Made by a program: the position numbers and the translations under genes. This document shows, piece by piece, positions 2,301 to 37,607 of a stretch of DNA of 37,607 bases. Position 1 is the stretch's first letter. Each line of letters begins with the position of its first letter. The DNA lies in the IMG/VR virus record IMGVR_UViG_3300044712_002688, positions 1 through 37,607 of that record. The stretch is one strand, 5' to 3'. Origin of the DNA: a virus. The notes beneath the pieces are model-generated. The model was not told the origin of the DNA and made no database searches. It saw only the letters and a list, made by a program, of their open reading frames with translations.

Positions 2301-2822
2301 TTACTCCGTTCTCGCGTCATCTGAACTTTCATGCGGGGTCATGAAATCATCTCCAAACGCCTGGCTATCGCGCGGAAGTAGGCAAAGGCAGTAGCCTATC
2401 TCACCAATTTGGGCCAGCTTCTGACTCTGATAGAAGATTGCAGACAGAGGATACTTTTCAGTCAAATAGGTTGACAGGCTCTGACAGATTGCATGTCCGC
2501 CCTGTTCGCCAGTCACAGTCAACACAGATGTGAGTTCCTTATCCTCCGCAAATGCCACCAGGTCAAATGCAGTCACTTCCTGAGGCCTGACCCTGTAGAG
2601 CATGAGCGGACTATTATCTGGGACCTCAGCCTGTGCACAGGCCGTGCCACTTGCGAAGTAGAGACCCGACTGCCCATCAGTGTTAAACCTGCCGGCACGC
2701 ATCGAGGCGCCGTATGGGTCCGTCGGGTAACGGTATGACACCCAGTCGCCATTGATCGCAATCTTCCTCGTGTACTGCATGACTGTGTCCGGATCCAGAA
2801 TGTATTCCCAGTCGATCGCCAT
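2301..2822 (-). CDS. RES-domain protein (putative NAD+-degrading toxin)
   Basis: This 173-residue protein has the landmarks of the RES domain, named for conserved Arg, Glu and Ser: Arg45 in AGRFN, Tyr55 in GLYFAS, Glu66 in ACAQAEV and Ser133 in IFYQSQK. RES toxins of RES-Xre modules are known to degrade NAD+ by phosphorolysis; applying that here is inference. No Xre/MbcA-type antitoxin lies next to it; its neighbours are an HsdR-N protein upstream and TcmP downstream. A longer frame begins at 2984, but the start at 2822 has a good GGAGAGGGG site, and the extra N-terminal residues are low-complexity and overlap the upstream gene. It could be a toxin, a defence effector or a domesticated enzyme. 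Confidence 0.75.
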   Translation of the reverse strand: MAIDWEYILDPDTVMQYTRKIAINGDWVSYRYPTDPYGASMRAGRFNTDGQSGLYFASGTACAQAEVPDNSPLMLYRVRPQEVTAFDLVAFAEDKELTSVLTVTGEQGGHAICQSLSTYLTEKYPLSAIFYQSQKLAQIGEIGYCLCLLPRDSQAFGDDFMTPHESSDDARTE

Positions 2823-2884
2823 GATTCCCCCTCTCCTACTCCCCCTCCGCCGCGAAGAGCAGGCCCTGGTGACCGGGCCGGCTG

Positions 2885-3688
2885 CTACGCCTGTGGTTCC
2901 GCTGGGCATCCCGGTTCGGGGACAGTCGGACGGCCTCCCTTGGGCGCTCGCTTCTTTTTGGCCGAGCACTTCTTGATCTTGCACTGGACCTTCACGGCCT
3001 CGTCACCCTCGAGCACGTCCCGCTTGATGACCTCGGCCAGGAGGATCTTCTCGATCTCCTCGTTGCTGACCTTGTTCCCGGGAGCCAGGCTCTTCATCTC
3101 CTTGCGGATGGCATCGAGGACAGTCTTGGTCTGAAGGATGGCGCCAATCACGAACCGGTTGACGTTCTGCTGCCGTTCGTAAAACTCGTCGATGGCGGCC
3201 TTGTTGAGACCCTCCCGGCAGAGCAAGAAGAGCCGGCACTGTTCCTCCTGGCTCCGAGGATTCATGGCGAGGAGATCGAAGGTGCAGGCGAGCTCGTGGG
3301 AAATCGGCTGCTCGAACTTGATCCGGTAGATCTCCCAGATGATGCCGTTGGTCAGGACCACCCAAGGGATCCCCTCGTTGGCGCCGTAGTTGACCGCCTG
3401 GCGAAGGTGGTTGTCCTTCAGGTCCATGCCGATGGCCTTGACCTCGATGAGGTATTGGATCTTGCTGTTGACCTTCACCGCCAGGTCGCAGAAGGTCCCG
3501 CGGATGCACTGCTCGCTGGTCAGCTCGGTGTATTTATCGAACCCGAAAACGTGGGCGAGGATGTCCTTGATGATGGTGACCGTGTCGGTCTCATTGACGT
3601 CCCGGTCGCGGGCCGCTTGGAGAACTCGCTGGAATGCGGTCACCTCTCTTGCAAGACGGTCTGACACCTTCTTTGGGATCTTGAACAT
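2885..3688 (-). CDS. Orphan type I restriction HsdR N-terminal-like nuclease domain protein
   Basis: This 267-residue protein resembles the N-terminal endonuclease domain of type I restriction subunit R (HSDR_N), without the helicase motor. Residues 35-125 hold a PD-(D/E)XK-like core: Asp68 in CDLAVKV, then Glu82-x-Lys84 in YLIEVKA, followed by QAVNYGANEG and WVVLTNGIIWEIYRI, which are typical of the family. The C-terminus (from about 225) is Lys-rich and ends in a Pro-rich tail. No hsdM or hsdS gene is present in the window. It follows the thermonuclease gene by 11 bases with an AGGAGG site. Stand-alone members of this type are common in phages and mobile elements, and their role is not established. 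Confidence 0.75.
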   Translation of the reverse strand: MFKIPKKVSDRLAREVTAFQRVLQAARDRDVNETDTVTIIKDILAHVFGFDKYTELTSEQCIRGTFCDLAVKVNSKIQYLIEVKAIGMDLKDNHLRQAVNYGANEGIPWVVLTNGIIWEIYRIKFEQPISHELACTFDLLAMNPRSQEEQCRLFLLCREGLNKAAIDEFYERQQNVNRFVIGAILQTKTVLDAIRKEMKSLAPGNKVSNEEIEKILLAEVIKRDVLEGDEAVKVQCKIKKCSAKKKRAPKGGRPTVPEPGCPAEPQA

Positions 3689-6105: not shown

Positions 6106-6741
6106 TCAGACCTTCGTCGTGATCCGGGTGATCCGGTAGGCAACGAACGTCTCCCCGGCTGGCACGATTATGCTCTGGTAATCCGGGTTGATCGGCCGCA
6201 GTTCTACGCTCCCGTCGTCCCTCTTGAAGAACTTCTTCACCGTGACCCCGTTGTCGCGGTGCCGTGCAAAGACGATATCCCCGTTGTTGACCGCCTGCCC
6301 GGGCTCGACCAGGAGGAGGTCGCCGGGTTCGACACGACGGGACTTGGAGTAGGGGCCGGTCATTGAGTCCCCTTCGGCCACAACGAAGAAGGCATGAGGA
6401 TCATCTGTCCGCATGGGCTCGTATCCATGGGCCACGCCGACGGGGTAATCGAGGTCGGTGGCGTCCTTCCAGTTTCCGCAGGCCGCAACGTTGATGACCG
6501 GTACCTGGCGGATGCCGGAAGACTCTTCAGGGACTTTGCCATGCAGGAGCCATCGTGAATCGACATTGAGTGCCGTGGCCAGTCGTTCGAGCTGGTCTTG
6601 ATCAGGCCGGCGGCCGTTCAGGTAGTACTGGATCAAGCGTTCGGAAATGCCTGTCGCCTGGGCCAAGCGGCGTTTGTCGCCTCGGTTGGAAAGTAGACCG
6701 CGTAGCCTGTCTGAAAAGGCCTTCCCTTCAGGCTCCTTCAA
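6106..6741 (-). CDS. CI/LexA-type prophage repressor (HTH + S24 peptidase)
   Basis: This 211-residue lysogeny repressor has an N-terminal XRE helix-turn-helix (about 10-60) and a C-terminal S24 self-cleavage domain. The predicted scissile bond is Cys88-Gly89 in NVAACGNW, with nucleophile Ser126 in EGDSMTGP and general base Lys169 in GVTVKKFF. The Gly-to-Ser (37) and Ser-to-Lys (43) spacings equal those of lambda CI, which supports RecA-stimulated autocleavage and SOS induction. The start is TTG, with a GGAGG site 9 bases upstream that lies inside an inverted repeat likely bound by the repressor. It diverges from the Cro-like gene and heads the leftward cargo operon. Confidence 0.9.
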   Translation of the reverse strand: MKEPEGKAFSDRLRGLLSNRGDKRRLAQATGISERLIQYYLNGRRPDQDQLERLATALNVDSRWLLHGKVPEESSGIRQVPVINVAACGNWKDATDLDYPVGVAHGYEPMRTDDPHAFFVVAEGDSMTGPYSKSRRVEPGDLLLVEPGQAVNNGDIVFARHRDNGVTVKKFFKRDDGSVELRPINPDYQSIIVPAGETFVAYRITRITTKV

Positions 6742-6839: not shown

Positions 6840-7064
6840 ATGGCGAAGAGGGCCGAGGCGCCGACCGCATTTCAGATCCGCATCCGCATGATCGAACTGG
6901 GCCTGACCCAAAGGGCTATCGCGGAGAAGCTTGGGGTCACCCGGGAGATGGTCAACCAGGTGATGCGCGGTCGCACGAAGTCAGCCCGAGTCGCCGCCGG
7001 TGTGGCGGAGGCGCTCGGGTATCCGGTCGAGGTTCTTTTTCCGAACGAAAGGAGGGTGGCGTGA
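6840..7064 (+). CDS. Cro-like XRE-family regulator
   Basis: A 74-residue helix-turn-helix protein. The motif LTQRAIAEKLGVTREMVNQVMRG spans about 22-44 (LTQRAIAEKLG, then the recognition-helix part VTREMVNQVMRG), preceded by a helix (FQIRIRMIEL), as in Ner/Nlp and Cro-type DNA-binding proteins. It is the first gene behind the rightward promoter and diverges from the repressor gene, the classical position of Cro. It probably represses repressor synthesis during lytic growth. The ribosome site GGAGGGAGGGG ends 7 bases before the ATG. Confidence 0.85.
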   Translation: MAKRAEAPTAFQIRIRMIELGLTQRAIAEKLGVTREMVNQVMRGRTKSARVAAGVAEALGYPVEVLFPNERRVA

Positions 7065-7397: not shown

Positions 7398-7431
7398 GGC
7401 GTCCATGAGGAATCACGAGGAGGATGCTAAC

Positions 7432-7884
7432 GTGACACTCACCGACGTCATTCACGCCACCATCCACAGGCACCCGAAGAAGTCGCTCCGCTGGATCGCC
7501 GAAGAAATCGGCATGGCCCCGTCCTACCTGGGCCGTGCCGGTCTGCCGTCAGACGCAGACGATCAGGCGGGGTGCAATTTCCCGCTCAAGAAGCTCGTCC
7601 CCCTCATCCGTGCCACCGGGGATTTCGGCATCCTCGACTGGATAGAGGGCTCGGTCGGCAGGGTGGCGATTCCGCTCCCCGCTCCGGGGGCCGGATCGGA
7701 CGTGATCTACCAGAAGCTGGTCCACGTCGTGGCCGAGTTCGGGGACATGACCCGGGCCACCGGCGAGGCACTGAAGGACGGCCGGGTCAGCCGGCGGGAG
7801 TACGACGAAATCAGAACCCAAACCATGGAGCAAATCCGAGCCTCGCTGGCTCTGCTTGCCCAGCTCGAGGAGGTGGCCAAGTGA
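7432..7884 (+). CDS. CII-like phage regulatory protein (CP76 family-like)
   Basis: A 150-residue protein resembling phage CII-like regulators of the CP76 type. The N-terminal part (TLTDVIHATIHRHPKKSLRWIAEEIGMAPSYLGR region) forms a helix-turn-helix, followed by NFPLKKLVPLIRATGDFGILDWI, a pattern typical of the family. The C-terminus is helical with a coiled-coil-like MEQIRASLALLAQLEEV. These proteins influence the lysis-lysogeny choice or immunity. I chose the GTG at 7432, with GAGGAGG 8 bases upstream, over an ATG at 7405 with no good site. The stop overlaps the next gene's GTG. Confidence 0.65.
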   Translation: MTLTDVIHATIHRHPKKSLRWIAEEIGMAPSYLGRAGLPSDADDQAGCNFPLKKLVPLIRATGDFGILDWIEGSVGRVAIPLPAPGAGSDVIYQKLVHVVAEFGDMTRATGEALKDGRVSRREYDEIRTQTMEQIRASLALLAQLEEVAK

Positions 7885-8204
7885 AGGAGTTCTTCAAGAT
7901 CACGTGCAGCATCCTGCTCACCGCGGCCATCGTGACGGGCGCGGTCACCTTCGTAGCCAAGTACTTCGATGACCAGGCGTTCCGTCTGGAGGTCAAGCGG
8001 CAGTACGAGGACAAGCAGACCGAAACCATGCTGGCCTTCGAGCGGGCGCTATCCAGGTTCGCCCTGGACCAGACCGTGGTGAAGAATCCCTGGGACCTGG
8101 AGTATGCCCTCGACCGGACACCCGTTTCTGGAATCAAGGGGGCCTACGTCTACACCCTCAGGTTTGCCGACCGAAGTGCCGTGCAGGAGGCGATGAACCG
8201 ATGA
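7881..8204 (+). CDS. Small single-pass membrane protein
   Basis: A 107-residue protein starting at GTG (overlapping the CII-like stop by GTGA). It has an N-terminal hydrophobic helix at about 7-26 followed by a charged region (EVKRQYEDKQTE) and a soluble tail. No family is recognised. Its place in the early region next to regulators, with a membrane anchor, would fit an exclusion or host-interference protein, but nothing in the sequence proves that. The stop overlaps the ATG of the AlpA-like gene. Confidence 0.6.
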   Translation: MKEFFKITCSILLTAAIVTGAVTFVAKYFDDQAFRLEVKRQYEDKQTETMLAFERALSRFALDQTVVKNPWDLEYALDRTPVSGIKGAYVYTLRFADRSAVQEAMNR

Positions 8205-8386
8205 ATGGATTCCTGCGTCTGCCTGCCGTCCTGGCGCTCTACCCCGTGTCGGCCGCCACCTGGTGGCGCGGGGTGAAGTCAGGGCGTTTCCCAAAGCCGG
8301 TGAAGCTCGGTCCGAACAGCACCGCCTGGAAGGCCGAGGACATCGCCGAGTTGATCGAGCGGGTAGGGAAGGGGAGGGCGGCATGA
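8201..8386 (+). CDS. AlpA-like helix-turn-helix regulator
   Basis: A 61-residue protein of the AlpA/MerR-like excisionase-regulator type: LRLPAVLALYPVSAATWWRGVKSGRFPKPVKLGPNST... shows the typical order of a short helix, a recognition helix with WWR, then SGRFPKPVKLG and a final helix. AlpA-type proteins regulate integrase or excision genes and phage operons. It overlaps the preceding and following genes by four bases each, placing it within one tightly coupled early operon. Confidence 0.75.
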   Translation: MNGFLRLPAVLALYPVSAATWWRGVKSGRFPKPVKLGPNSTAWKAEDIAELIERVGKGRAA

Positions 8387-8490
8387 CCCCCGACACCTGC
8401 CCGAACTGCGGCCGAGAGGTCGACTCCAACGCCCTGCACTGCCCGCACTGCGGGGCATCAACCACCAGCATCGTCAAGGAGAGAACATGA
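8383..8490 (+). CDS. 35-residue zinc-ribbon peptide
   Basis: A very small protein made of one zinc-ribbon: CPNC near residues 6-9 and CPHC near 21-24, with the two knuckles separated by a short turn. It starts with an ATGA overlap after the AlpA-like gene and its stop overlaps the next ATG, so it is embedded in the translated chain and very probably real. Function unknown; a nucleic-acid or protein adaptor is plausible. Confidence 0.6.
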   Translation: MTPDTCPNCGREVDSNALHCPHCGASTTSIVKERT

Positions 8491-9548
8491 GACCCACACG
8501 CATCAAAGGACTGAGCGACCGACGCCGGCTCCCCCGGCTCGGCAAGATCCACCTGGGGGTGAAGGATCCCCAGCGCGGTTTCCCCAAGAAGACCGACTAC
8601 TTCGTCTGCCCTCCCGAGGTTCAGGCCGTCTACGGCGCCACGCCGCGCGACCTCGATGTCATCCTGCCCGTCGACGATCCCGAGCAGATCTTCCCCCAGG
8701 CCTACAAGTGCTACCGGGCCGGGGTCGGCTTGTGGTGCACCGGCGACGGCGAGACCGGCTGGCGCGTCGGCAAGGACAAGGACGGCTCCGAGCTGATGGA
8801 GGAGGTCGAGTGCCCCTGCGAGCTCGTAGACCAGAAGAAGTGCAAGCAGATGGGCAACCTCATGGTCATCCTTCCCCGGGTGAGCCTGGGGGGCGTCTAC
8901 CAGATCGACACCGGGTCGATCAACAGCATCACCGACATCAACTCCGGGCTCGACTTCATCCGGGACCGCGCCGGCCGCCTCAACAACGTGCCGTGCATCC
9001 TCACCCTGCGCCCACGGGAGACCACGGTGGAGGGCAAGAAGTCGGTGATCTACACGATGAACCTGGTCCTGGCCAACTTCGAGACAATAAAGCGGTTGCA
9101 GGGGCAGATGACGGAGATCCGCCAGCTGCTCGGCGGGGACGTGTCCCCCCGCGTTGCGCTGCCGGCCCCGTCGGTCGAGACGGACCTGATCCCGGCCGAC
9201 GTCGTCCAGGTGATCGACCACGAGGAGGCTGAGGAAGCCCCGCCCGCCCCGGCGGACGACTTCACCCCGCCGGGCAGAAGGGCCAGCCGGCCAGCGCCGG
9301 CCCCGGCCGCCCGGGTGACCACGGTCGAAACTGCACCGGAGGCCCCGGCCGTCAAGGCGCAGACCGTCGAGGAGGTCATGGAGCTTTGGGACTGCGGCCG
9401 CAAGGAGGCCGAGGACATGATCGCCGCCGAGGCGCGGCGTGCCCAGCAGGCCAATCCGGCCGTCCGGGTGGGCGCGGTCAACGTGCCGCGCCCGGCCATG
9501 ACGCCCACCCCCAAGCCGGCGCAGCGTCCCGCGCTTGAATCATTCTAG
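8487..9548 (+). CDS. Gp3-like / recombination directionality factor-like protein
   Basis: A 353-residue protein resembling the Gp3-like family that includes the phiC31 recombination directionality factor. Features seen: an opening IKGLSDRRRLPRLGKIHLGVK, VYGATPRDLDVILPVDD (48-64), CYRAGVGLWCTGDGETGWR (about 74-92), and a Cys pair motif VECPCELVDQKKCKQMG that could bind metal. After about residue 235 comes a Pro/Ala-rich linker, then a helical tail (VEEVMELWDCGRKEAEDMI). Homologues beside RecB-like nucleases are often called metal-binding proteins. The integrase here is a tyrosine recombinase, so a serine-integrase partner role is doubtful; a recombination or replication role is likelier. Confidence 0.6.
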   Translation: MRPTRIKGLSDRRRLPRLGKIHLGVKDPQRGFPKKTDYFVCPPEVQAVYGATPRDLDVILPVDDPEQIFPQAYKCYRAGVGLWCTGDGETGWRVGKDKDGSELMEEVECPCELVDQKKCKQMGNLMVILPRVSLGGVYQIDTGSINSITDINSGLDFIRDRAGRLNNVPCILTLRPRETTVEGKKSVIYTMNLVLANFETIKRLQGQMTEIRQLLGGDVSPRVALPAPSVETDLIPADVVQVIDHEEAEEAPPAPADDFTPPGRRASRPAPAPAARVTTVETAPEAPAVKAQTVEEVMELWDCGRKEAEDMIAAEARRAQQANPAVRVGAVNVPRPAMTPTPKPAQRPALESF

Positions 9549-13745: not shown

Positions 13746-14675
13746 ATGGCCTCGACCACCGATATCCGCCTGGACATCACGATCTTCTCCAACCCGAAGG
13801 TCCTCCGCCTCCAGAAGAGACTCGGCAGCGATGGAGTTGTCGCCCTGATCCGCCTCTGGTGCTACACGGGCGCCAGCAAGCCGGACGGTGACCTCGGAAC
13901 CGACGTCGAGACCATCGAGGTTGCCGCCGGCTGGACCGGGGAGGACGGGAAGCTGGTCGATACCCTCGCCTCGCTCAAGCTCCTGGACGTTGGGGACGAC
14001 GGCTCCTTCCTCGTCCACGGGTGGGACGAGAACCAGCCCTACATCGCCGATGCGCCGAGTCGTTCCGAACAGGCGCGAAAGGCAGCACTTGCCCGCCACG
14101 AAAGGAAAAGCAAATCAAAGGCTTCTGCTCGCAGCATGCCGCCGGCAAACAAGCAGCATGCTCCGGCTGTGCCCCCTCCTTCCCTCCCTCCTACCCTCCT
14201 ACCTACCATCCCTCCCCCCCCTACCCCCCAGGCGTCACCCGCCCGCCAGCGCGAGGACCGGCCCATGTCCCAGGCGGTCGGCGACGTCCTCGAGCGCATC
14301 AAGGCCAAGCTGCCAGCCGAGCTCGATAACGGCGAACAGCCAACAGCAGGGGGGGAGGGTGCACATGCACCCACCAGCAACGGCAACGGCGGGAACGGCA
14401 ACGGCGCCCGGGGAGAACCGGACAAGCTCACCGCCTCGCGCATCGCCGGGCTGCAGAACCTGTCGAAGTTCGTGCTCCAGAAGATCCTCGACGAGCACTG
14501 GCCGCTGATCAAGAGCCTCCGGGTGCGCGTCAACGGCTCGGGGGATATCCCCATCGCCACGGCCTACGACCGCTGGCGAGATACCGGCAGCCACGCCTAC
14601 CGCGACGCCTTGATCATGGCCTTCGTGACCACCGTGCCGCCCGCGCCACAGGCCGCAGCAGCAGGGAGGGGGTGA
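13746..14675 (+). CDS. Phage replication initiator/replisome organiser-like protein
   Basis: A 309-residue protein whose N-terminal ~100 residues (LDITIFSNPKVLRLQKRLGSDGVVALIRLWCYTG...) match the DNA-binding N-terminal domain of phage replication initiators and DnaD-like organisers. A long low-complexity linker (about 115-235) is rich in Ala, Ser, Pro, Asn and Gly, and is followed by a helical C-terminal region (AGLQNLSKFVLQKILDEHW) that may recruit helicase machinery. The linker is encoded by a striking G-free pyrimidine tract (14172-14230) and a 15-base direct repeat, reminiscent of lambda, where the origin lies inside the O initiator gene. No helicase gene is in the window, so host helicase use is likely. 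Confidence 0.65.
   Translation: MASTTDIRLDITIFSNPKVLRLQKRLGSDGVVALIRLWCYTGASKPDGDLGTDVETIEVAAGWTGEDGKLVDTLASLKLLDVGDDGSFLVHGWDENQPYIADAPSRSEQARKAALARHERKSKSKASARSMPPANKQHAPAVPPPSLPPTLLPTIPPPPTPQASPARQREDRPMSQAVGDVLERIKAKLPAELDNGEQPTAGGEGAHAPTSNGNGGNGNGARGEPDKLTASRIAGLQNLSKFVLQKILDEHWPLIKSLRVRVNGSGDIPIATAYDRWRDTGSHAYRDALIMAFVTTVPPAPQAAAAGRG
14172..14230. repeat. G-free pyrimidine tract (possible origin or structure-forming element)
   Basis: This run of 59 bases in the initiator gene holds no G and only six A, the rest being C and T. On the minus strand it gives at least seven runs of three or more G, a strong G-quadruplex candidate, and the duplex could also form a triplex. It encodes part of the Pro-rich linker. 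It may be a by-product of Pro coding or a functional origin element. Confidence 0.55.
14379..14408 (+). repeat. Tandem 15-base direct repeat in the initiator gene
   Basis: Two adjacent 15-base units, AACGGCAACGGCGGG and AACGGCAACGGCGCC, differ only in the last two bases; each contains an internal AACGGC doublet. They encode Asn-Gly-rich linker residues. Iteron-like function is possible given the location in a replication gene, but simple linker expansion explains it equally well. Confidence 0.4.
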
Positions 14676-14679
14676 TCGC

Positions 14680-14829
14680 ATGGCAGCCGCGAAGCCCAAG
14701 CACGACCACGACAAGGTTCCAGTGCCGAAGCGCCTGATGCTCCTGCCCATCGTCGACGAGATCTCCGCCGAGATCGACGACCAGGCCAGGCCGAAGAGGA
14801 CTCCCAAGAAGCCGAAGGAGGGCAAATGA
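14680..14829 (+). CDS. Small charged hypothetical protein
   Basis: A 49-residue protein with a Lys/His-rich start (KPKHDHDK), a short helical middle (LMLLPIVDEISAEI) and a basic Lys/Pro-rich tail. A GGGAGGGGG site precedes its ATG, and its stop overlaps the ATG of the next gene. No known family; real by context and ribosome site rather than by similarity. Confidence 0.5.
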   Translation: MAAAKPKHDHDKVPVPKRLMLLPIVDEISAEIDDQARPKRTPKKPKEGK

Positions 14830-15020
14830 CGACGGTTTCAGACCAGGTGGAGGGGACGACCAGGATGAACGTAGCCGAGGCGGCGGTCTTCTTCCGCAAG
14901 TCCGACCGCACCATCCTCCGGTGGATCGCCGAGGGGAGAATTGTCGCCAGAAAGGACCCCGGCGGTCACGAGTGGTGGGTCTTCGTCGAAATGAACATGA
15001 CAAGACATGACAACTCATGA
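14826..15020 (+). CDS. Excisionase/MerR-like helix-turn-helix protein
   Basis: A 64-residue protein with a MerR/excisionase-type DNA-binding fold: MNVAEAAVFFRKSDRTILRWIAEGRIVARKD, where AEAAVFFRKS and RTILRWIAEGRI form the helix-turn-helix and the following GGHEWWVF the wing. Proteins of this type bend DNA for excision or regulate neighbouring genes. Four 10-base phased repeats begin at its 3' end (14997-15036), which makes self-binding or control of the downstream methyltransferase a concrete possibility. It starts with an ATGA overlap. Confidence 0.75.
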   Translation: MTTVSDQVEGTTRMNVAEAAVFFRKSDRTILRWIAEGRIVARKDPGGHEWWVFVEMNMTRHDNS

Positions 15021-15036
15021 CAAGACCTGCCAAGAC
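14997..15036 (+). repeat. Four tandem 10-base phased repeats
   Basis: The units are ATGACAAGAC, ATGACAACTC, ATGACAAGAC and the degenerate CTGCCAAGAC, head to tail with one helical turn per unit. They span the last codons of the helix-turn-helix gene and the leader of the methyltransferase gene. Such phasing is typical of cooperative binding sites for small DNA-binding proteins, excisionases included. The bound protein is not known. Confidence 0.65.
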
Positions 15037-15076
15037 GACGTAGAAACCGGGGTGCCTCGCGCCTCACCATAGGCGC

Positions 15077-16312
15077 ATGGCAAGGAACGCGACGAAAAAG
15101 ACCACCGCTGAAGTCACCACACCTACCTCTCCCTTCCCCACGCACCAGGTCAAAAAGATCAATCTCACGCGCGTGAACCCGGCCCCCTACAACCCCCGGC
15201 TCGACCTGCAGCCCGGGGACGCCGCCTACAACGCCCTGCGCCGATCGCTCCAGGAGTTCGGCCTGGTCGAGCCCCTGGTGTTCAACGAAGCCACGGGGAA
15301 CCTGGTCGGTGGTCACCAGCGCCTGAAGGTCCTCCTCGAGCAGGGAGTCACCGAAGCCGACGCCGTGATCGTCAGCCTGGACGACGCCCGGGAGAAAGCC
15401 TTGAACGTCGCCCTGAACAAGATCAACGGCGACTGGGACCTGCCGAAGCTGGCCGACCTGCTCGAGGAGTTGAAGCTCTCGCCGATCGGCTGCGAGCTGA
15501 CCGGGTTCGACCAGCGGGAGATCGACGAGATCCTGGTCAAGTTCCAGGACGTGACCCCGGGCGACACGGACCCGGACGAGGTTCCCGGAGTGCCGGCGGA
15601 GGCGACGACCCAGCAGGGTGACATCTGGCTGCTGGGCACGCACCGCCTCATGTGCGGCGACGCCACGGATGCCGACCAGGTGAAGGCGCTGCTCGACGGC
15701 CAGATGGCCGACGTGACCTTCACGGACCCACCCTACAACGTCGATTACGACCGCGGCCGGAAGATCCTCAACGACAATCTGGGCACCGACTTCGAAGTCT
15801 TCCTGGCGGCGGCCTGCCGCAACATCCTCGAAGCTACCAAGGGCGCGATCTACGTCTGCATGTCCTCGAGCGAGCTGCACACCCTGCAGCGGGCCTTCAC
15901 CCAGGCCGGCGGCCACTGGTCGACGTTCATCATCTGGGCCAAGAACACCTTCACCCTCGGCCGGGCCGACTACCAGCGGCAGTATGAACCGATCCTCTAC
16001 GGTTGGAGGGAGGGCGGCGAGCACTTCTGGTGCGGGGATCGCAACCAGGGCGACGTCTGGGCCATCAACAAGCCCATCGTCAACGACCTTCACCCGACCA
16101 TGAAGCCCACGGAGCTTGTCATCCGGGCGCTGCGCAACAGCAGTCCCCCCGGCGCCGCGGTCCTCGACCTCTTCGGCGGCTCCGGCTCGACCATGATCGC
16201 CGCCGAGCAGACCGGCCGCCGGGCCTTCCTCATGGAACTCGACCCGCTCTACTGCGACGTGATCGTGACCCGCTGGGAGAACTTCACCGGCAAGAAGGCG
16301 GTGCGGACATGA
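15077..16312 (+). CDS. ParB-like domain fused to DNA methyltransferase
   Basis: This 411-residue fusion has an N-terminal ParB/Srx-like nuclease-fold domain (about 25-120, with GNLVGGHQRLK around 75-84) and a beta-class DNA amino-methyltransferase domain. DPPY (217-220) is the catalytic motif IV, HPTMKP (339-344) follows, and FGGSGST (366-372) with MELD (386-389) forms the AdoMet site, so motif order is IV then I. It should methylate adenine N6 or cytosine N4. No matching restriction enzyme is present, so the likely roles are protection from host restriction or control of phage DNA. Its ribosome site is weak (AGGCG), unlike its neighbours. Confidence 0.9.
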   Translation: MARNATKKTTAEVTTPTSPFPTHQVKKINLTRVNPAPYNPRLDLQPGDAAYNALRRSLQEFGLVEPLVFNEATGNLVGGHQRLKVLLEQGVTEADAVIVSLDDAREKALNVALNKINGDWDLPKLADLLEELKLSPIGCELTGFDQREIDEILVKFQDVTPGDTDPDEVPGVPAEATTQQGDIWLLGTHRLMCGDATDADQVKALLDGQMADVTFTDPPYNVDYDRGRKILNDNLGTDFEVFLAAACRNILEATKGAIYVCMSSSELHTLQRAFTQAGGHWSTFIIWAKNTFTLGRADYQRQYEPILYGWREGGEHFWCGDRNQGDVWAINKPIVNDLHPTMKPTELVIRALRNSSPPGAAVLDLFGGSGSTMIAAEQTGRRAFLMELDPLYCDVIVTRWENFTGKKAVRT

Positions 16313-16671
16313 GCCGCCTGAGCAAGGAGCTCATCGACAAGGCCTGCTCGGTGATCAAGTCAGGCTGCACGCAACGGACGGCCGCCGAGTACATCGGCGT
16401 CTCCGAGGAATGCCTCTCCAGGTGGAAGACGAAGAACGCCTGGGTGCGGTCGAAGATCGACAAGGCCCAGGCCGGCACGAAGGTGGCCATGGTCAACATG
16501 ATCGCCGAGGCCGGGAAACTCGACTGGAAGGCCATCGCCTGGATCCTCGAGCGGAACTTCCCCGACGACTTCGCCCTGAAACAGAAGCTCGAACACTCTG
16601 GTGCTGGCGGCGGACCGATCCAGATGACGTTCATCTCCGGCCTGCCGCGCCGCGGGGAAGCCGTTGAATGA
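16309..16671 (+). CDS. Terminase small subunit-like HTH protein
   Basis: A 120-residue protein with an N-terminal helix-turn-helix (AACSV... GCTQRTAAEYIGVSEECLSRWK pattern at about 10-42) and the later segment WILERNFPDDFALKQKLEHSG, which is typical of phage small-terminase-like DNA-recognition subunits. It should bind the packaging site and present DNA to the large subunit encoded immediately after. It overlaps the methyltransferase stop by four bases and the large terminase start by four bases. The C-terminal tail is short and Gly-rich. Confidence 0.75.
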   Translation: MSRLSKELIDKACSVIKSGCTQRTAAEYIGVSEECLSRWKTKNAWVRSKIDKAQAGTKVAMVNMIAEAGKLDWKAIAWILERNFPDDFALKQKLEHSGAGGGPIQMTFISGLPRRGEAVE

Positions 16672-18041
16672 GGCCGCGCGCATGGATACTCGCCGTGGCG
16701 ATGGTGCTGGCCATGTCTGATGCCGCAGGCGCCGTCCAGGTGGTGAACCTGGCCGACACCTACAAGCCCACCGCCGACGGCATCAGGTTCCACGCCAACC
16801 CCAAGACGTTCATCGGTCTTGGCGGGGAGAAGGGCGGCGGAAAGACCTGGGCTGCTCTGGCCGAGCTGCTCAGCCTCTGCATGGAGTTCCCGGGCAACCG
16901 GGTCATGGTCTTCAGGCAGAAGCTTGAGACCCTGCAGACGACCACGCTCAACACCTTCTGGCGGGTGTGCCCGCCCAGCCTGATCGCCGAGCACGTCGCC
17001 AGCGCGAAGGTGGTCCGACTCGTCAATGGAAGCGAGGTCCTCTACCGCGGCCTGAGCGGCAACGTGCTGTCCAGCGAGCCGGCCATCCAGCATTACCTGG
17101 ACGACCTCAAGAGCCTCGAGCTGGGGGCGTTCTACATCAACGAGGCCAGTCAGACCCGCAAGGAGTTCTGGGACACGCTGAAGCAGACGCTCCGATGGGT
17201 GCCCCAAGGAATCGACCCGCACAAGATGTTCTGGCGAGGCCTCGCCGACAGCAACCCCGAGCCGGGGTGGTTCCACAAGACCTTCGTCCGGGAGATCCCC
17301 GGCGACCACGACTTCGTTCACTTCCACGCGAGGAACAACGCCGGCAACCTGGCCCCGGGCTACTACGACCGATTCTCCGACATGCCGGAGAGCTGGCGGA
17401 AGCGGTATGTCGAGGGACGCTGGGAGTTCAACCAGGAGGGTGACTGCTGGGTCTACCCCTACGACCTGGTCATGGAGGCCATGCAGCGTGAGCTGCCGCC
17501 GGCCGGCGAGCCGAAGGAATACGGCCTTGATCCGGCCGGCCAGGGCGCCGACGAGGCCGTTCTCGTGCTGCTCGATCCCCCGGTGTTCTCCCTCTGGGCG
17601 TGGGCCAAGACCACCGGCCCCCAGCTGCGGAGCAACGTGCTCGGGGTGATGGACCAGCACGGCCGAGCCCTGCTCAAGTACGACGCCGGCGGCCTGGGAG
17701 CGCCCAACGGAGAGTTCATCAAGGACGCCGGGGTAAGGGTCAAGGCGGTCAGCACGAAGAGAACCACCTTCAAGCCGGAGAGGTTCGCCGACTACCGCTC
17801 GGAGATGTTCTGGGCGCTTCGGGATCGGCTCGAATCGAAACGGGCCGTGCTGCCCGACGATGACCGGCTCCGTGAGCAGATGGTTGCGCTCCGATGGGCG
17901 CCCGACTCCAACGGCCGCATCAAGGTCGAGGAGAAGGCAGACTACAAGAAGCGGATGGGCATGTCCCCTGACCGGATGGAGGCGGTGGTCTACGCCAACT
18001 GGAAGGAACCGGTCGGATCATGGCGGCAGGGGACCTACTGA
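16668..18041 (+). CDS. terL: Terminase large subunit
   Basis: A 457-residue DNA-packaging motor. The ATPase part has a Walker A GLGGEKGGGKTW (50-61), the arginine-containing VMVFRQKLE and a Walker B-like FYINEA ending at Glu159. The nuclease part shows Asp288 in YGLDPAGQGAD, Asp339 in KYDAGG and Asp435 in SPDRMEA, the acidic triad that makes the genome-end cuts. Its start overlaps the small subunit stop (ATGA). The first 22 residues look like a signal peptide (WILAVAMVLAM... AAGA), which is odd for a cytoplasmic motor; an internal ATG may be the real start. Confidence 0.9.
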   Translation: MRPRAWILAVAMVLAMSDAAGAVQVVNLADTYKPTADGIRFHANPKTFIGLGGEKGGGKTWAALAELLSLCMEFPGNRVMVFRQKLETLQTTTLNTFWRVCPPSLIAEHVASAKVVRLVNGSEVLYRGLSGNVLSSEPAIQHYLDDLKSLELGAFYINEASQTRKEFWDTLKQTLRWVPQGIDPHKMFWRGLADSNPEPGWFHKTFVREIPGDHDFVHFHARNNAGNLAPGYYDRFSDMPESWRKRYVEGRWEFNQEGDCWVYPYDLVMEAMQRELPPAGEPKEYGLDPAGQGADEAVLVLLDPPVFSLWAWAKTTGPQLRSNVLGVMDQHGRALLKYDAGGLGAPNGEFIKDAGVRVKAVSTKRTTFKPERFADYRSEMFWALRDRLESKRAVLPDDDRLREQMVALRWAPDSNGRIKVEEKADYKKRMGMSPDRMEAVVYANWKEPVGSWRQGTY

Positions 18042-36401: not shown

Positions 36402-37607
36402 TCAGACTACAACCTGTCTATCACCTCCCGTCCCTCGCAACTCGTCCAGGTAATCCGACCACACCTGCATCATCCGCCGGCGCTCTTCCAGATGCTGCGT
36501 CCGGTTGTAGGCCCTGCCTAGTGGATCCTTGACCGTGTGGGCGAGCTGGTGCTCGATGATCTCCGGCCGGAAGTGCAGCACCTCGTCCAGCAGCGTCCGG
36601 GCGGTTGCCCGCCAGCCGTGCAGGGTGACCGACCCAGCAGGGTATCCGATTGCCCTCAGTACTGCCGTGATTGTGGCGTCGGACATCGGCCGCGTCCTGG
36701 TCCGGTAGCCGGGGAAGACGTAATCCCCGCTCTGGCCGAGAGACTGCAGATTGCGGAGGATCTCCACCGCCTGGCGGGAGAGGGGAACGACGTGGTCCTG
36801 CTTCTGCCCCTTCATCCTGGCGGCCGGGATGATCCAGGTCTTCGAGTTGAGATCGATCTCGGCCCACCTTGCACTGCGCAGCTCACCTGGACGGACGAAC
36901 ACCAGGGGGGCCATGGCAAGGGCTGCCTTGACGGTCGGCGTGCCGTGGTAGGCGTCTGTGGCCCGCAGGAGCTTGCCGACATCCTCCGGGTCCAGGGCGG
37001 CGCCGAAGTGCTGTCGCTTGGGGGAGGGAAGGGCCCCGCGGAGGTCGCCGGTCGGGTCCCGATCGGTCCGGCCGGTGGCGACGGCGTATCGGCAGATCTG
37101 ACCGACGATGACCTTCACCCGGTGGGCGGTCTCTATCGTGCCGGCAGCCTCTATCTTGCGGAGCATGGCCAGGATCTCGGGAGCCCGAGTATCCCCGATG
37201 GCCAGCCTTCCCAGCGCGGGGATGACGTACTTGTCCATCCGCAGCTTGATCATGTGGGCATGTCGCTCTGACCAGGACGGGCAGAACCGGGCGAACCACT
37301 CCAGGGCAACCTCCTCGAACCGCTGGGCGGTGTCACCCGTTCGCTTGGCGGCCGCCTTGACCTTGCCAGGGTCGACTCCCTTGAGCAGGAGCGCTCGCGC
37401 CTCGAGCGCCATGCGTCGGGCGCCCTCCAAGGGGATCTCCGGCCAGGGGCCGAACGCCAGGAGCTTCTCCTTCCGGTTGAATCGGTATTTGAGGCGCCAG
37501 AGCTTGGAGCCGGCTGGCGTGACCAGGAGGTAGAGGCCGCGGTGGTCGCTGAGCTTGCAGGCCTTCTCCTGCGGTCTGGCCTTGCGGATCGTCACGTCTG
37601 TCAGCAT
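36402..37607 (-). CDS. int: P4-type tyrosine integrase
   Basis: A 401-residue integrase with the N-terminal arm-binding domain of P4-type integrases (DUF4102, residues 1-85, GLYLLVTPAGSKLWRLKYR), a core-binding domain (about 95-180) and a catalytic domain. Catalytic residues are Arg239 (FVRPGEL), Lys266 (RMKGQK), His330 and Arg333 (LHGWRAT), His357 (EHQLAH) and Tyr367 (GRAYNRT). P4-type enzymes usually insert into tRNA genes. Its start codon is the last base of the window, so its promoter and the right attachment site lie just outside. Confidence 0.95.
   Translation of the reverse strand: MLTDVTIRKARPQEKACKLSDHRGLYLLVTPAGSKLWRLKYRFNRKEKLLAFGPWPEIPLEGARRMALEARALLLKGVDPGKVKAAAKRTGDTAQRFEEVALEWFARFCPSWSERHAHMIKLRMDKYVIPALGRLAIGDTRAPEILAMLRKIEAAGTIETAHRVKVIVGQICRYAVATGRTDRDPTGDLRGALPSPKRQHFGAALDPEDVGKLLRATDAYHGTPTVKAALAMAPLVFVRPGELRSARWAEIDLNSKTWIIPAARMKGQKQDHVVPLSRQAVEILRNLQSLGQSGDYVFPGYRTRTRPMSDATITAVLRAIGYPAGSVTLHGWRATARTLLDEVLHFRPEIIEHQLAHTVKDPLGRAYNRTQHLEERRRMMQVWSDYLDELRGTGGDRQVVV

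What the first reader, a model, noticed from the sequence alone, without database searches (positions are those of the whole stretch)
14997..15036. Four 10-base phased repeats upstream of the methyltransferase
ATGACAAGAC, ATGACAACTC, ATGACAAGAC and CTGCCAAGAC follow head to tail with exact helical phasing, overlapping the end of an excisionase-like gene. Phased tandem sites usually mean cooperative binding; the neighbouring small helix-turn-helix protein is the obvious candidate. The methyltransferase behind them has a weak ribosome site, which fits special control.
Basis: partly seen in the sequence, partly recalled or inferred. Interest (0 to 1): 0.65.

Follow-up and report, generated by a model that had tools for sequence, protein, structure and literature searches.

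The report
Phased repeats beside BldC-like phage gene
A temperate phage carries four helically phased 10-base repeats over the end of a gene for a tiny DNA-binding protein, just ahead of a DNA methyltransferase gene; the protein resembles BldC, known to line up head-to-tail on such repeats, so this is most likely an ordinary small operator, not a new kind of system.

Summary
Four 10-bp units lie head to tail at 14997-15036 and form the best period-10 array in the window (0 of 200 shuffles equal it). Units 1-3 overlap the 3' end of ORF 14826-15020, whose stop codon is the TGA of unit 3. The neighbouring 64-aa protein is a winged HTH. Its only significant PDB sequence relatives, and its best structural matches, are the BldC-DNA complexes; BldC oligomerises head-to-tail on 9-bp direct repeats. 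BldC positions that matter for binding or assembly (E16, F21, R22, R30, W31, G44, H46) are conserved. Upstream of 14 BldC-like genes in other phages, 3-mers recur in helical phase (lags 10, 20, 30; 158 against 101 expected; off-phase lags not enriched). Best reading: a BldC-like operator governing the HTH gene and/or the methyltransferase. Binding is not shown, and the protein lacks the usual last helix. No support was found for an excisionase role, integrase arm sites, iterons or a special cross-phage TGACAA motif (73 viral contigs against 59 and 34 for two scrambled words). No close relative of this phage was found, so conservation could not be tested. New member of a known kind; modest interest.

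The parts
14997..15036 (+). array of four 10-bp direct repeats (14997-15006, 15007-15016, 15017-15026, 15027-15036); invariant T2 G3 C5 A6 A7 C10
14826..15020 (+). 64-aa BldC/Xis-like winged HTH protein (P0001); stop codon lies inside repeat unit 3; lacks the usual C-terminal helix
   Evidence: Pfam HTH_17 5e-7, profile positions 2-37 of 51; PDB best hits BldC 6amk/6ama; NCBIfam HTH_BldC 5.8e-6, below its cut-off; Foldseek top hits BldC and Pukovnik Xis
15077..16312 (+). ParB_N + N6/N4 DNA methyltransferase
   Evidence: Pfam PF01555 3e-20, PF02195 9e-5; viral relatives up to about 50-57% identical over most of their length
15017..15046 (+). weak promoter-like pair ATGACA (in unit 3) - 18 bp - TAGAAA; hypothetical
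   Evidence: 9 of 12 by manual scan; not reported by the stricter scanner
15053..15082 (+). imperfect 12-nt inverted repeat across the methyltransferase start codon; hypothetical, not more stable than chance
   Evidence: z -0.48
14680..14829 (+). 49-aa lysine-rich ORF, stop/start overlap (ATGA) with the HTH gene
   Evidence: sequence read directly
13746..14675 (+). replisome organizer-like protein, upstream module
   Evidence: PHROG 3926 7e-12
16309..16671 (+). putative terminase small subunit (weak matches only)
   Evidence: Pfam PF20901 0.026, NF040601 0.0086; adjacent to the large subunit
16668..18041 (+). terminase large subunit
   Evidence: tblastn to annotated phage terminases down to 9e-17

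Best explanation
The array is a DNA operator made of phased direct repeats. The small BldC/Xis-like winged HTH protein encoded by the gene it overlaps assembles on it head-to-tail, one protomer per roughly 10-bp unit. The resulting short nucleoprotein filament would repress or tune transcription through the 3' end of its own gene into the methyltransferase (and perhaps packaging) genes that follow. Shown here: the array, its position, and the kinship of the protein to BldC, including conserved binding and assembly residues. Also shown: phased repeats are enriched next to BldC-like genes of other phages. Inferred: that this protein binds this array, the stoichiometry, and the regulated target.
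For: Array real. P0001's only PDB sequence hits below E 0.01 are the BldC-DNA complexes 6amk and 6ama (E 0.002); its best NCBIfam model is HTH_BldC. Foldseek of its model ranks BldC-DNA complexes first and Pukovnik Xis next (probability 1.0, TM 0.5-0.65, but E 0.05-0.18). BldC binds head-to-tail on 9-bp direct repeats AATTXXXX(C), four protomers on four repeats (PMC5859096). BldC residues E16, F21, R22, R30, W31, G44, G45 and H46 correspond to E18, F23, R24, R32, W33, G46, G47 and H48 of P0001; mutating E16, R30, G44 or H46 weakens or abolishes BldC binding. In the BldC site CAATTCGGACAATTCGGACA each unit starts with C-A-A, and C5-A6-A7 is invariant in all four window units. Upstream of 14 other phage BldC-like genes, 3-mer recurrence at lags 10, 20 and 30 totals 158 against 100.6 expected (z 4.5, p 0.0005), with no excess at lags 5/15/25, 8/16/24 or 7/14/21. 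Other intergenic gaps of the same phages show only z 1.2, 0.5 and 1.4 at lags 10, 20 and 30. Examples: CGCCATAAG CGTCATAAG CGACATAGG before IdentityCrisis gp37 and CGACAACAG CGACACGCG CGACAACAT before Dogfish gp34.
Against: No binding data. P0001 matches the HTH_17 and HTH_BldC models only up to the wing; the usual C-terminal helix is missing, and the array begins where it would be encoded, so the protein might be truncated. Several hydrophobic interface positions differ (L11 to R, V23 to K, I40 to R, T42 to D). HTH_BldC scores 26 bits against a curated cut-off of 77. Period 10 here, 9 in BldC. In the other phages the repeats lie upstream of the HTH gene, not at its 3' end. The periodicity statistic was refined after a first look at the data, although multiples of 10 were the prior hypothesis. 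No homologous phage was found to show that the array is conserved.
Confidence: 0.52

Rival explanations
1. The array is a short tandem duplication made by replication slippage at the end of the gene, with no bound protein. It ends the gene because each unit carries a TGA, and the 10-bp period puts a stop in all three frames.
For: 10-bp tandem triplets are common in viral contigs whatever the word: TGACAA 73, AACAGT 59, ACTGAA 34. The HTH protein lacks its usual last helix, as if the 3' end had been overwritten. No relative shows conservation.
Against: Units have diverged, yet T2, G3, C5, A6, A7 and C10 are kept in all four. The array is AT-rich in a GC-rich genome. It sits beside the one protein type known to bind such arrays.
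Confidence: 0.25
2. The array is an operator, but for another phage regulator (the CII-like, Cro-like, CI or AlpA-like proteins) or a host factor acting on the methyltransferase promoter.
For: The phage encodes several other DNA-binding proteins (6106-6741, 6840-7064, 7405-7884, 8201-8386). Unit 3 offers a -35-like ATGACA 18 bp before TAGAAA.
Against: No further copy of the array near those genes. The promoter match is weak.
Confidence: 0.12
3. The repeats are iterons of a replication origin, used by the replisome organizer-like protein about 320 bp upstream.
For: The array follows a replication gene (PHROG 3926). In other viral contigs such arrays can sit beside primase-helicases.
Against: Only four 10-bp units. 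The flanks are 52-63% GC, with no AT-rich unwinding stretch beside the array.
Confidence: 0.05
4. The repeats are a packaging (cos/pac) recognition site bound by a Nu1-like HTH protein near the terminase genes.
For: P0001's best PHROG is a terminase small subunit family (E 1e-4). Lambda gpNu1 is among the weaker fold matches. The terminase genes lie 1.3-1.6 kb downstream.
Against: A separate putative small subunit sits directly before the large subunit (16309-16671). BldC and Xis score better than gpNu1. The methyltransferase gene separates the array from the terminase.
Confidence: 0.04
5. The repeats are arm-type sites of the phage's tyrosine integrase, or excisionase sites.
For: TGACAA arrays overlap or follow the 3' ends of integrases in L006, L094 and L209. 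An array lies about 107 bp beyond an integrase 49% identical to this one in L345.
Against: In this phage the array is about 21 kb from the integrase, with no copies near it or at the window's ends. In L345 the array is on the far side of the integrase from the tRNA genes, so it is not placed like an attachment-site arm.
Confidence: 0.02

Closest known systems
Streptomyces BldC and its operators (whiI, smeA-sffA)
   Same: Small wHTH protein without effector domain; key DNA-binding and assembly residues conserved; tandem direct repeats of about one helical turn; C-A-A at the start of each unit
   Different: Phage protein at the border of the replication and packaging modules; 10-bp rather than 9-bp period; the array overlaps the 3' end of its own gene; C-terminal helix missing; the curated HTH_BldC cut-off is not met
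wHTH recombination directionality factors (Pukovnik Xis, RdfS, lambda Xis)
   Same: HTH_17/excisionase-type fold; RdfS and other wHTH factors form head-to-tail oligomers on DNA (PMC11963761)
   Different: Not placed next to the integrase or an attachment site; no evidence of a role in excision
BldC-like 'Cro/excise' genes of actinophages (IdentityCrisis gp37, Dogfish gp34, UmaThurman gp37, Giles Cro)
   Same: Related small wHTH genes with helically phased direct repeats next to them
   Different: Most of those stand divergently from an immunity repressor, with the repeats upstream; here the gene is near the packaging module and the repeats are at its 3' end

Membership tests
BldC family (direct-repeat-binding wHTH) | small MerR-like wHTH without coiled coil or effector domain | tested here: met
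   64 aa; HTH_17 5e-7; BldC is the only PDB sequence hit below E 0.01
BldC family (direct-repeat-binding wHTH) | curated family score (NF033787) | tested here: not met
   26.1 bits against cut-off 77; therefore described as BldC-like, not filed as BldC
BldC family (direct-repeat-binding wHTH) | conserved DNA-contact and oligomer residues E16, F21, R22, R30, W31, G44, H46 | tested here: met
   all seven conserved in P0001
BldC family (direct-repeat-binding wHTH) | hydrophobic interface L11, V23, I40, T42, L43 | tested here: not met
   R, K, R, D, P in P0001; P at position 43 is common in other phage members
BldC family (direct-repeat-binding wHTH) | C-terminal helix after the wing (BldC residues 51-60) | tested here: not met
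   Pfam and NCBIfam matches end at the wing; the model shows a strand and then coil
BldC family (direct-repeat-binding wHTH) | cooperative head-to-tail binding to direct repeats | not testable with these tools
   needs a binding assay
Tyrosine-integrase excisionase (Xis/RDF) | gene and sites close to int/attP | tested here: not met
   about 21 kb from the integrase, no copies near it or at the window's ends; attP may lie outside the window
Replication-origin iterons | repeats beside an AT-rich unwinding region | tested here: not met
   GC profile

The most novel reading that the evidence does not exclude
BldC-like phage proteins as a group use helically phased direct-repeat operators as a general immunity/Cro-type switch. 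In this phage the same switch has been moved to the 3' end of its own gene, so that the repeats serve at once as coding end, all-frame stop and operator for a methyltransferase module.
Probability: 0.15. Interest if true: 0.45.

Novelty: new member of a known kind. Interest (0 to 1): 0.3.

Why it matters
If binding is confirmed, it extends the BldC mode of head-to-tail assembly on direct repeats to a phage switch, and gives a simple sequence signature (recurrence at 10, 20 and 30 bp) for locating operators of the many small 'excise/HTH' genes of actinophages whose sites are unknown. The single locus itself is ordinary phage regulation.

Tried and rejected
(1) A universal TGACAA array. One control word, AACAGT, resembles a LytTR-type site as I recall it, so it may be an imperfect control; the second word still gives 34. 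(2) Common gene partner: neighbours of those arrays are mixed (primases, terminase subunits, HNH, integrases), and no HTH_17 gene was seen among them. (3) Conservation in relatives: searches with the HTH protein and the terminase found none; methyltransferase relatives have no array. (4) Gene stops falling in the TGA of arrays: expected, because three units at period 10 close all three frames. (5) RNA element: no Rfam match; the leader fold is unremarkable. (7) Exact-pattern genome scan: 18 hits, mostly dispersed intergenic repeats in Dyadobacter.

Full report
Observation. The four units are present exactly as listed and are head to tail. The array is the best period-10 stretch in the window, and none of 200 dinucleotide shuffles equals it at that period. 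TRF extends it by two bases on the left (14995-15036). It is the only such array in the 37.6-kb virus record. It is AT-rich for this genome. It overlaps the last 24 nt of ORF 14826-15020 and the first 16 nt of the gap before the methyltransferase at 15077; the ORF's stop codon is the TGA of unit 3. Because every one of the first three units contains TGA and the period is 10, three units close all three frames, so any gene running into the array must end there.

Surroundings. The record is a temperate phage of IMG/VR with no taxonomic assignment. It has a CI-like (6106-6741, minus strand), Cro-like and CII-like switch, an AlpA-like ORF, a Gp3-like protein, a nuclease and an SbcC-like ATPase, a replisome organizer, then a 49-aa ORF, the HTH gene, the array, a ParB_N-methyltransferase fusion, and small and large terminase subunits. 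A tyrosine integrase with an arm-binding domain lies at the right end. No close relative was found in annotated phages, viral contigs or genomes. Relatives of the methyltransferase alone are plentiful, but none has a phased array or this HTH gene before it.

The protein. P0001 matches HTH_17. Its only PDB sequence relatives with E below 0.01 are the two BldC-DNA complexes, and its best NCBIfam model is HTH_BldC, though far below the curated cut-off. A single-sequence AlphaFold model of moderate confidence (pLDDT 67) matches BldC-DNA complexes first, then Pukovnik Xis and RacA (E-values 0.05-0.2, so supportive only). BldC binds 9-bp direct repeats head-to-tail with a directional C-AATT unit and forms filaments on longer arrays (PMC5859096); RdfS, a related wHTH factor, also forms head-to-tail filaments (PMC11963761). 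Seven BldC positions important for DNA contact or subunit contact are identical in P0001, while five positions on the hydrophobic face of the interface differ. P0001 ends after the wing and lacks the last helix of the fold.

A test in relatives. I took 14 BldC-like genes (near-identical copies left out) from phages of actinobacteria, Thermus and Flavonifractor and counted 3-mers recurring at each lag in the 150 bp upstream. Lags 9, 10, 20 and 30 stand out. Lags 10+20+30 together give 158 against 100.6 expected (z 4.5, p 0.0005), off-phase sets give nothing, and the result survives leaving out any one locus (z at least 3.1). Coding controls show only codon periodicity, and other intergenic gaps in these phages show weak helical signal. 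Clear arrays include three 9-bp units before IdentityCrisis gp37 and CGACAACAG CGACACGCG CGACAACAT before Dogfish gp34, the latter sharing GACAA with the window's unit. Caveats: the statistic was settled after a first look, and most of these genes sit in the Cro position beside a repressor, where operators are expected anyway.

A lead that failed. A first scan suggested that TGACAA arrays recur in many unrelated phages near integrases and primases. Scrambled words of the same composition give comparable numbers, so the word itself is at most mildly enriched and no shared system can be claimed. An exact genome scan returned mainly dispersed intergenic repeats in Dyadobacter.

Mechanism. The best-supported reading is an operator of phased direct repeats for the adjacent BldC-like protein, acting on its own gene's end and/or the methyltransferase leader. 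Shown: array, position, kinship, and phasing beside relatives. Inferred: the binding, its cooperativity and the regulated target. A weak -35-like match in unit 3 and a hairpin over the methyltransferase start are possible but unproven parts. Slippage without function is the main rival, helped by the missing helix and the lack of conservation data.

Verdict. New member of a known kind; interest 0.3.

Noticed in passing
L315-L332, 150 bp upstream of the BldC-like genes: Helically phased 3-mer recurrence (lags 10, 20, 30) upstream of BldC-like 'excise/Cro' genes of actinophages and Thermus phages; clear 9-bp arrays before IdentityCrisis gp37 and Dogfish gp34.
   Followed up: partly
L006:887-912, L094:4513-4540, L209:6883-6908: TGACAA arrays that overlap or directly follow the 3' end of tyrosine integrase genes, in the same orientation.
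   Followed up: partly
L345:202-228: Array about 107 bp beyond the 3' end of an integrase 49% identical to the window's, in a Methylococcaceae contig with tRNA-Cys and tRNA-Gly on the other side of the integrase.
   Followed up: partly
L334-L337, L342-L344, L350: Dyadobacter genomes hold several dispersed intergenic arrays of ATRACAANNC-type 10-bp units beside unrelated genes.
   Followed up: partly
window 8487-9548 and 36402-37607: A Gp3-like protein (Pfam: recombination directionality factor-like, E 1e-42; as I recall, a partner of serine integrases) occurs in a phage whose integrase is a tyrosine recombinase.
   Followed up: no
window 14174-14229: Pyrimidine-rich CCCTCCTACC-type tandem stretch inside the replisome organizer gene, encoding a proline-rich linker.
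   Followed up: no
window 2301-2984 (minus strand): RES-domain protein (Pfam PF08808, 1e-6), possibly part of a toxin-antitoxin pair.
   Followed up: no
L103, L164, L004, L005: Pairs of TGACAA arrays in opposite orientation about 60-270 bp apart in viral contigs.
   Followed up: no
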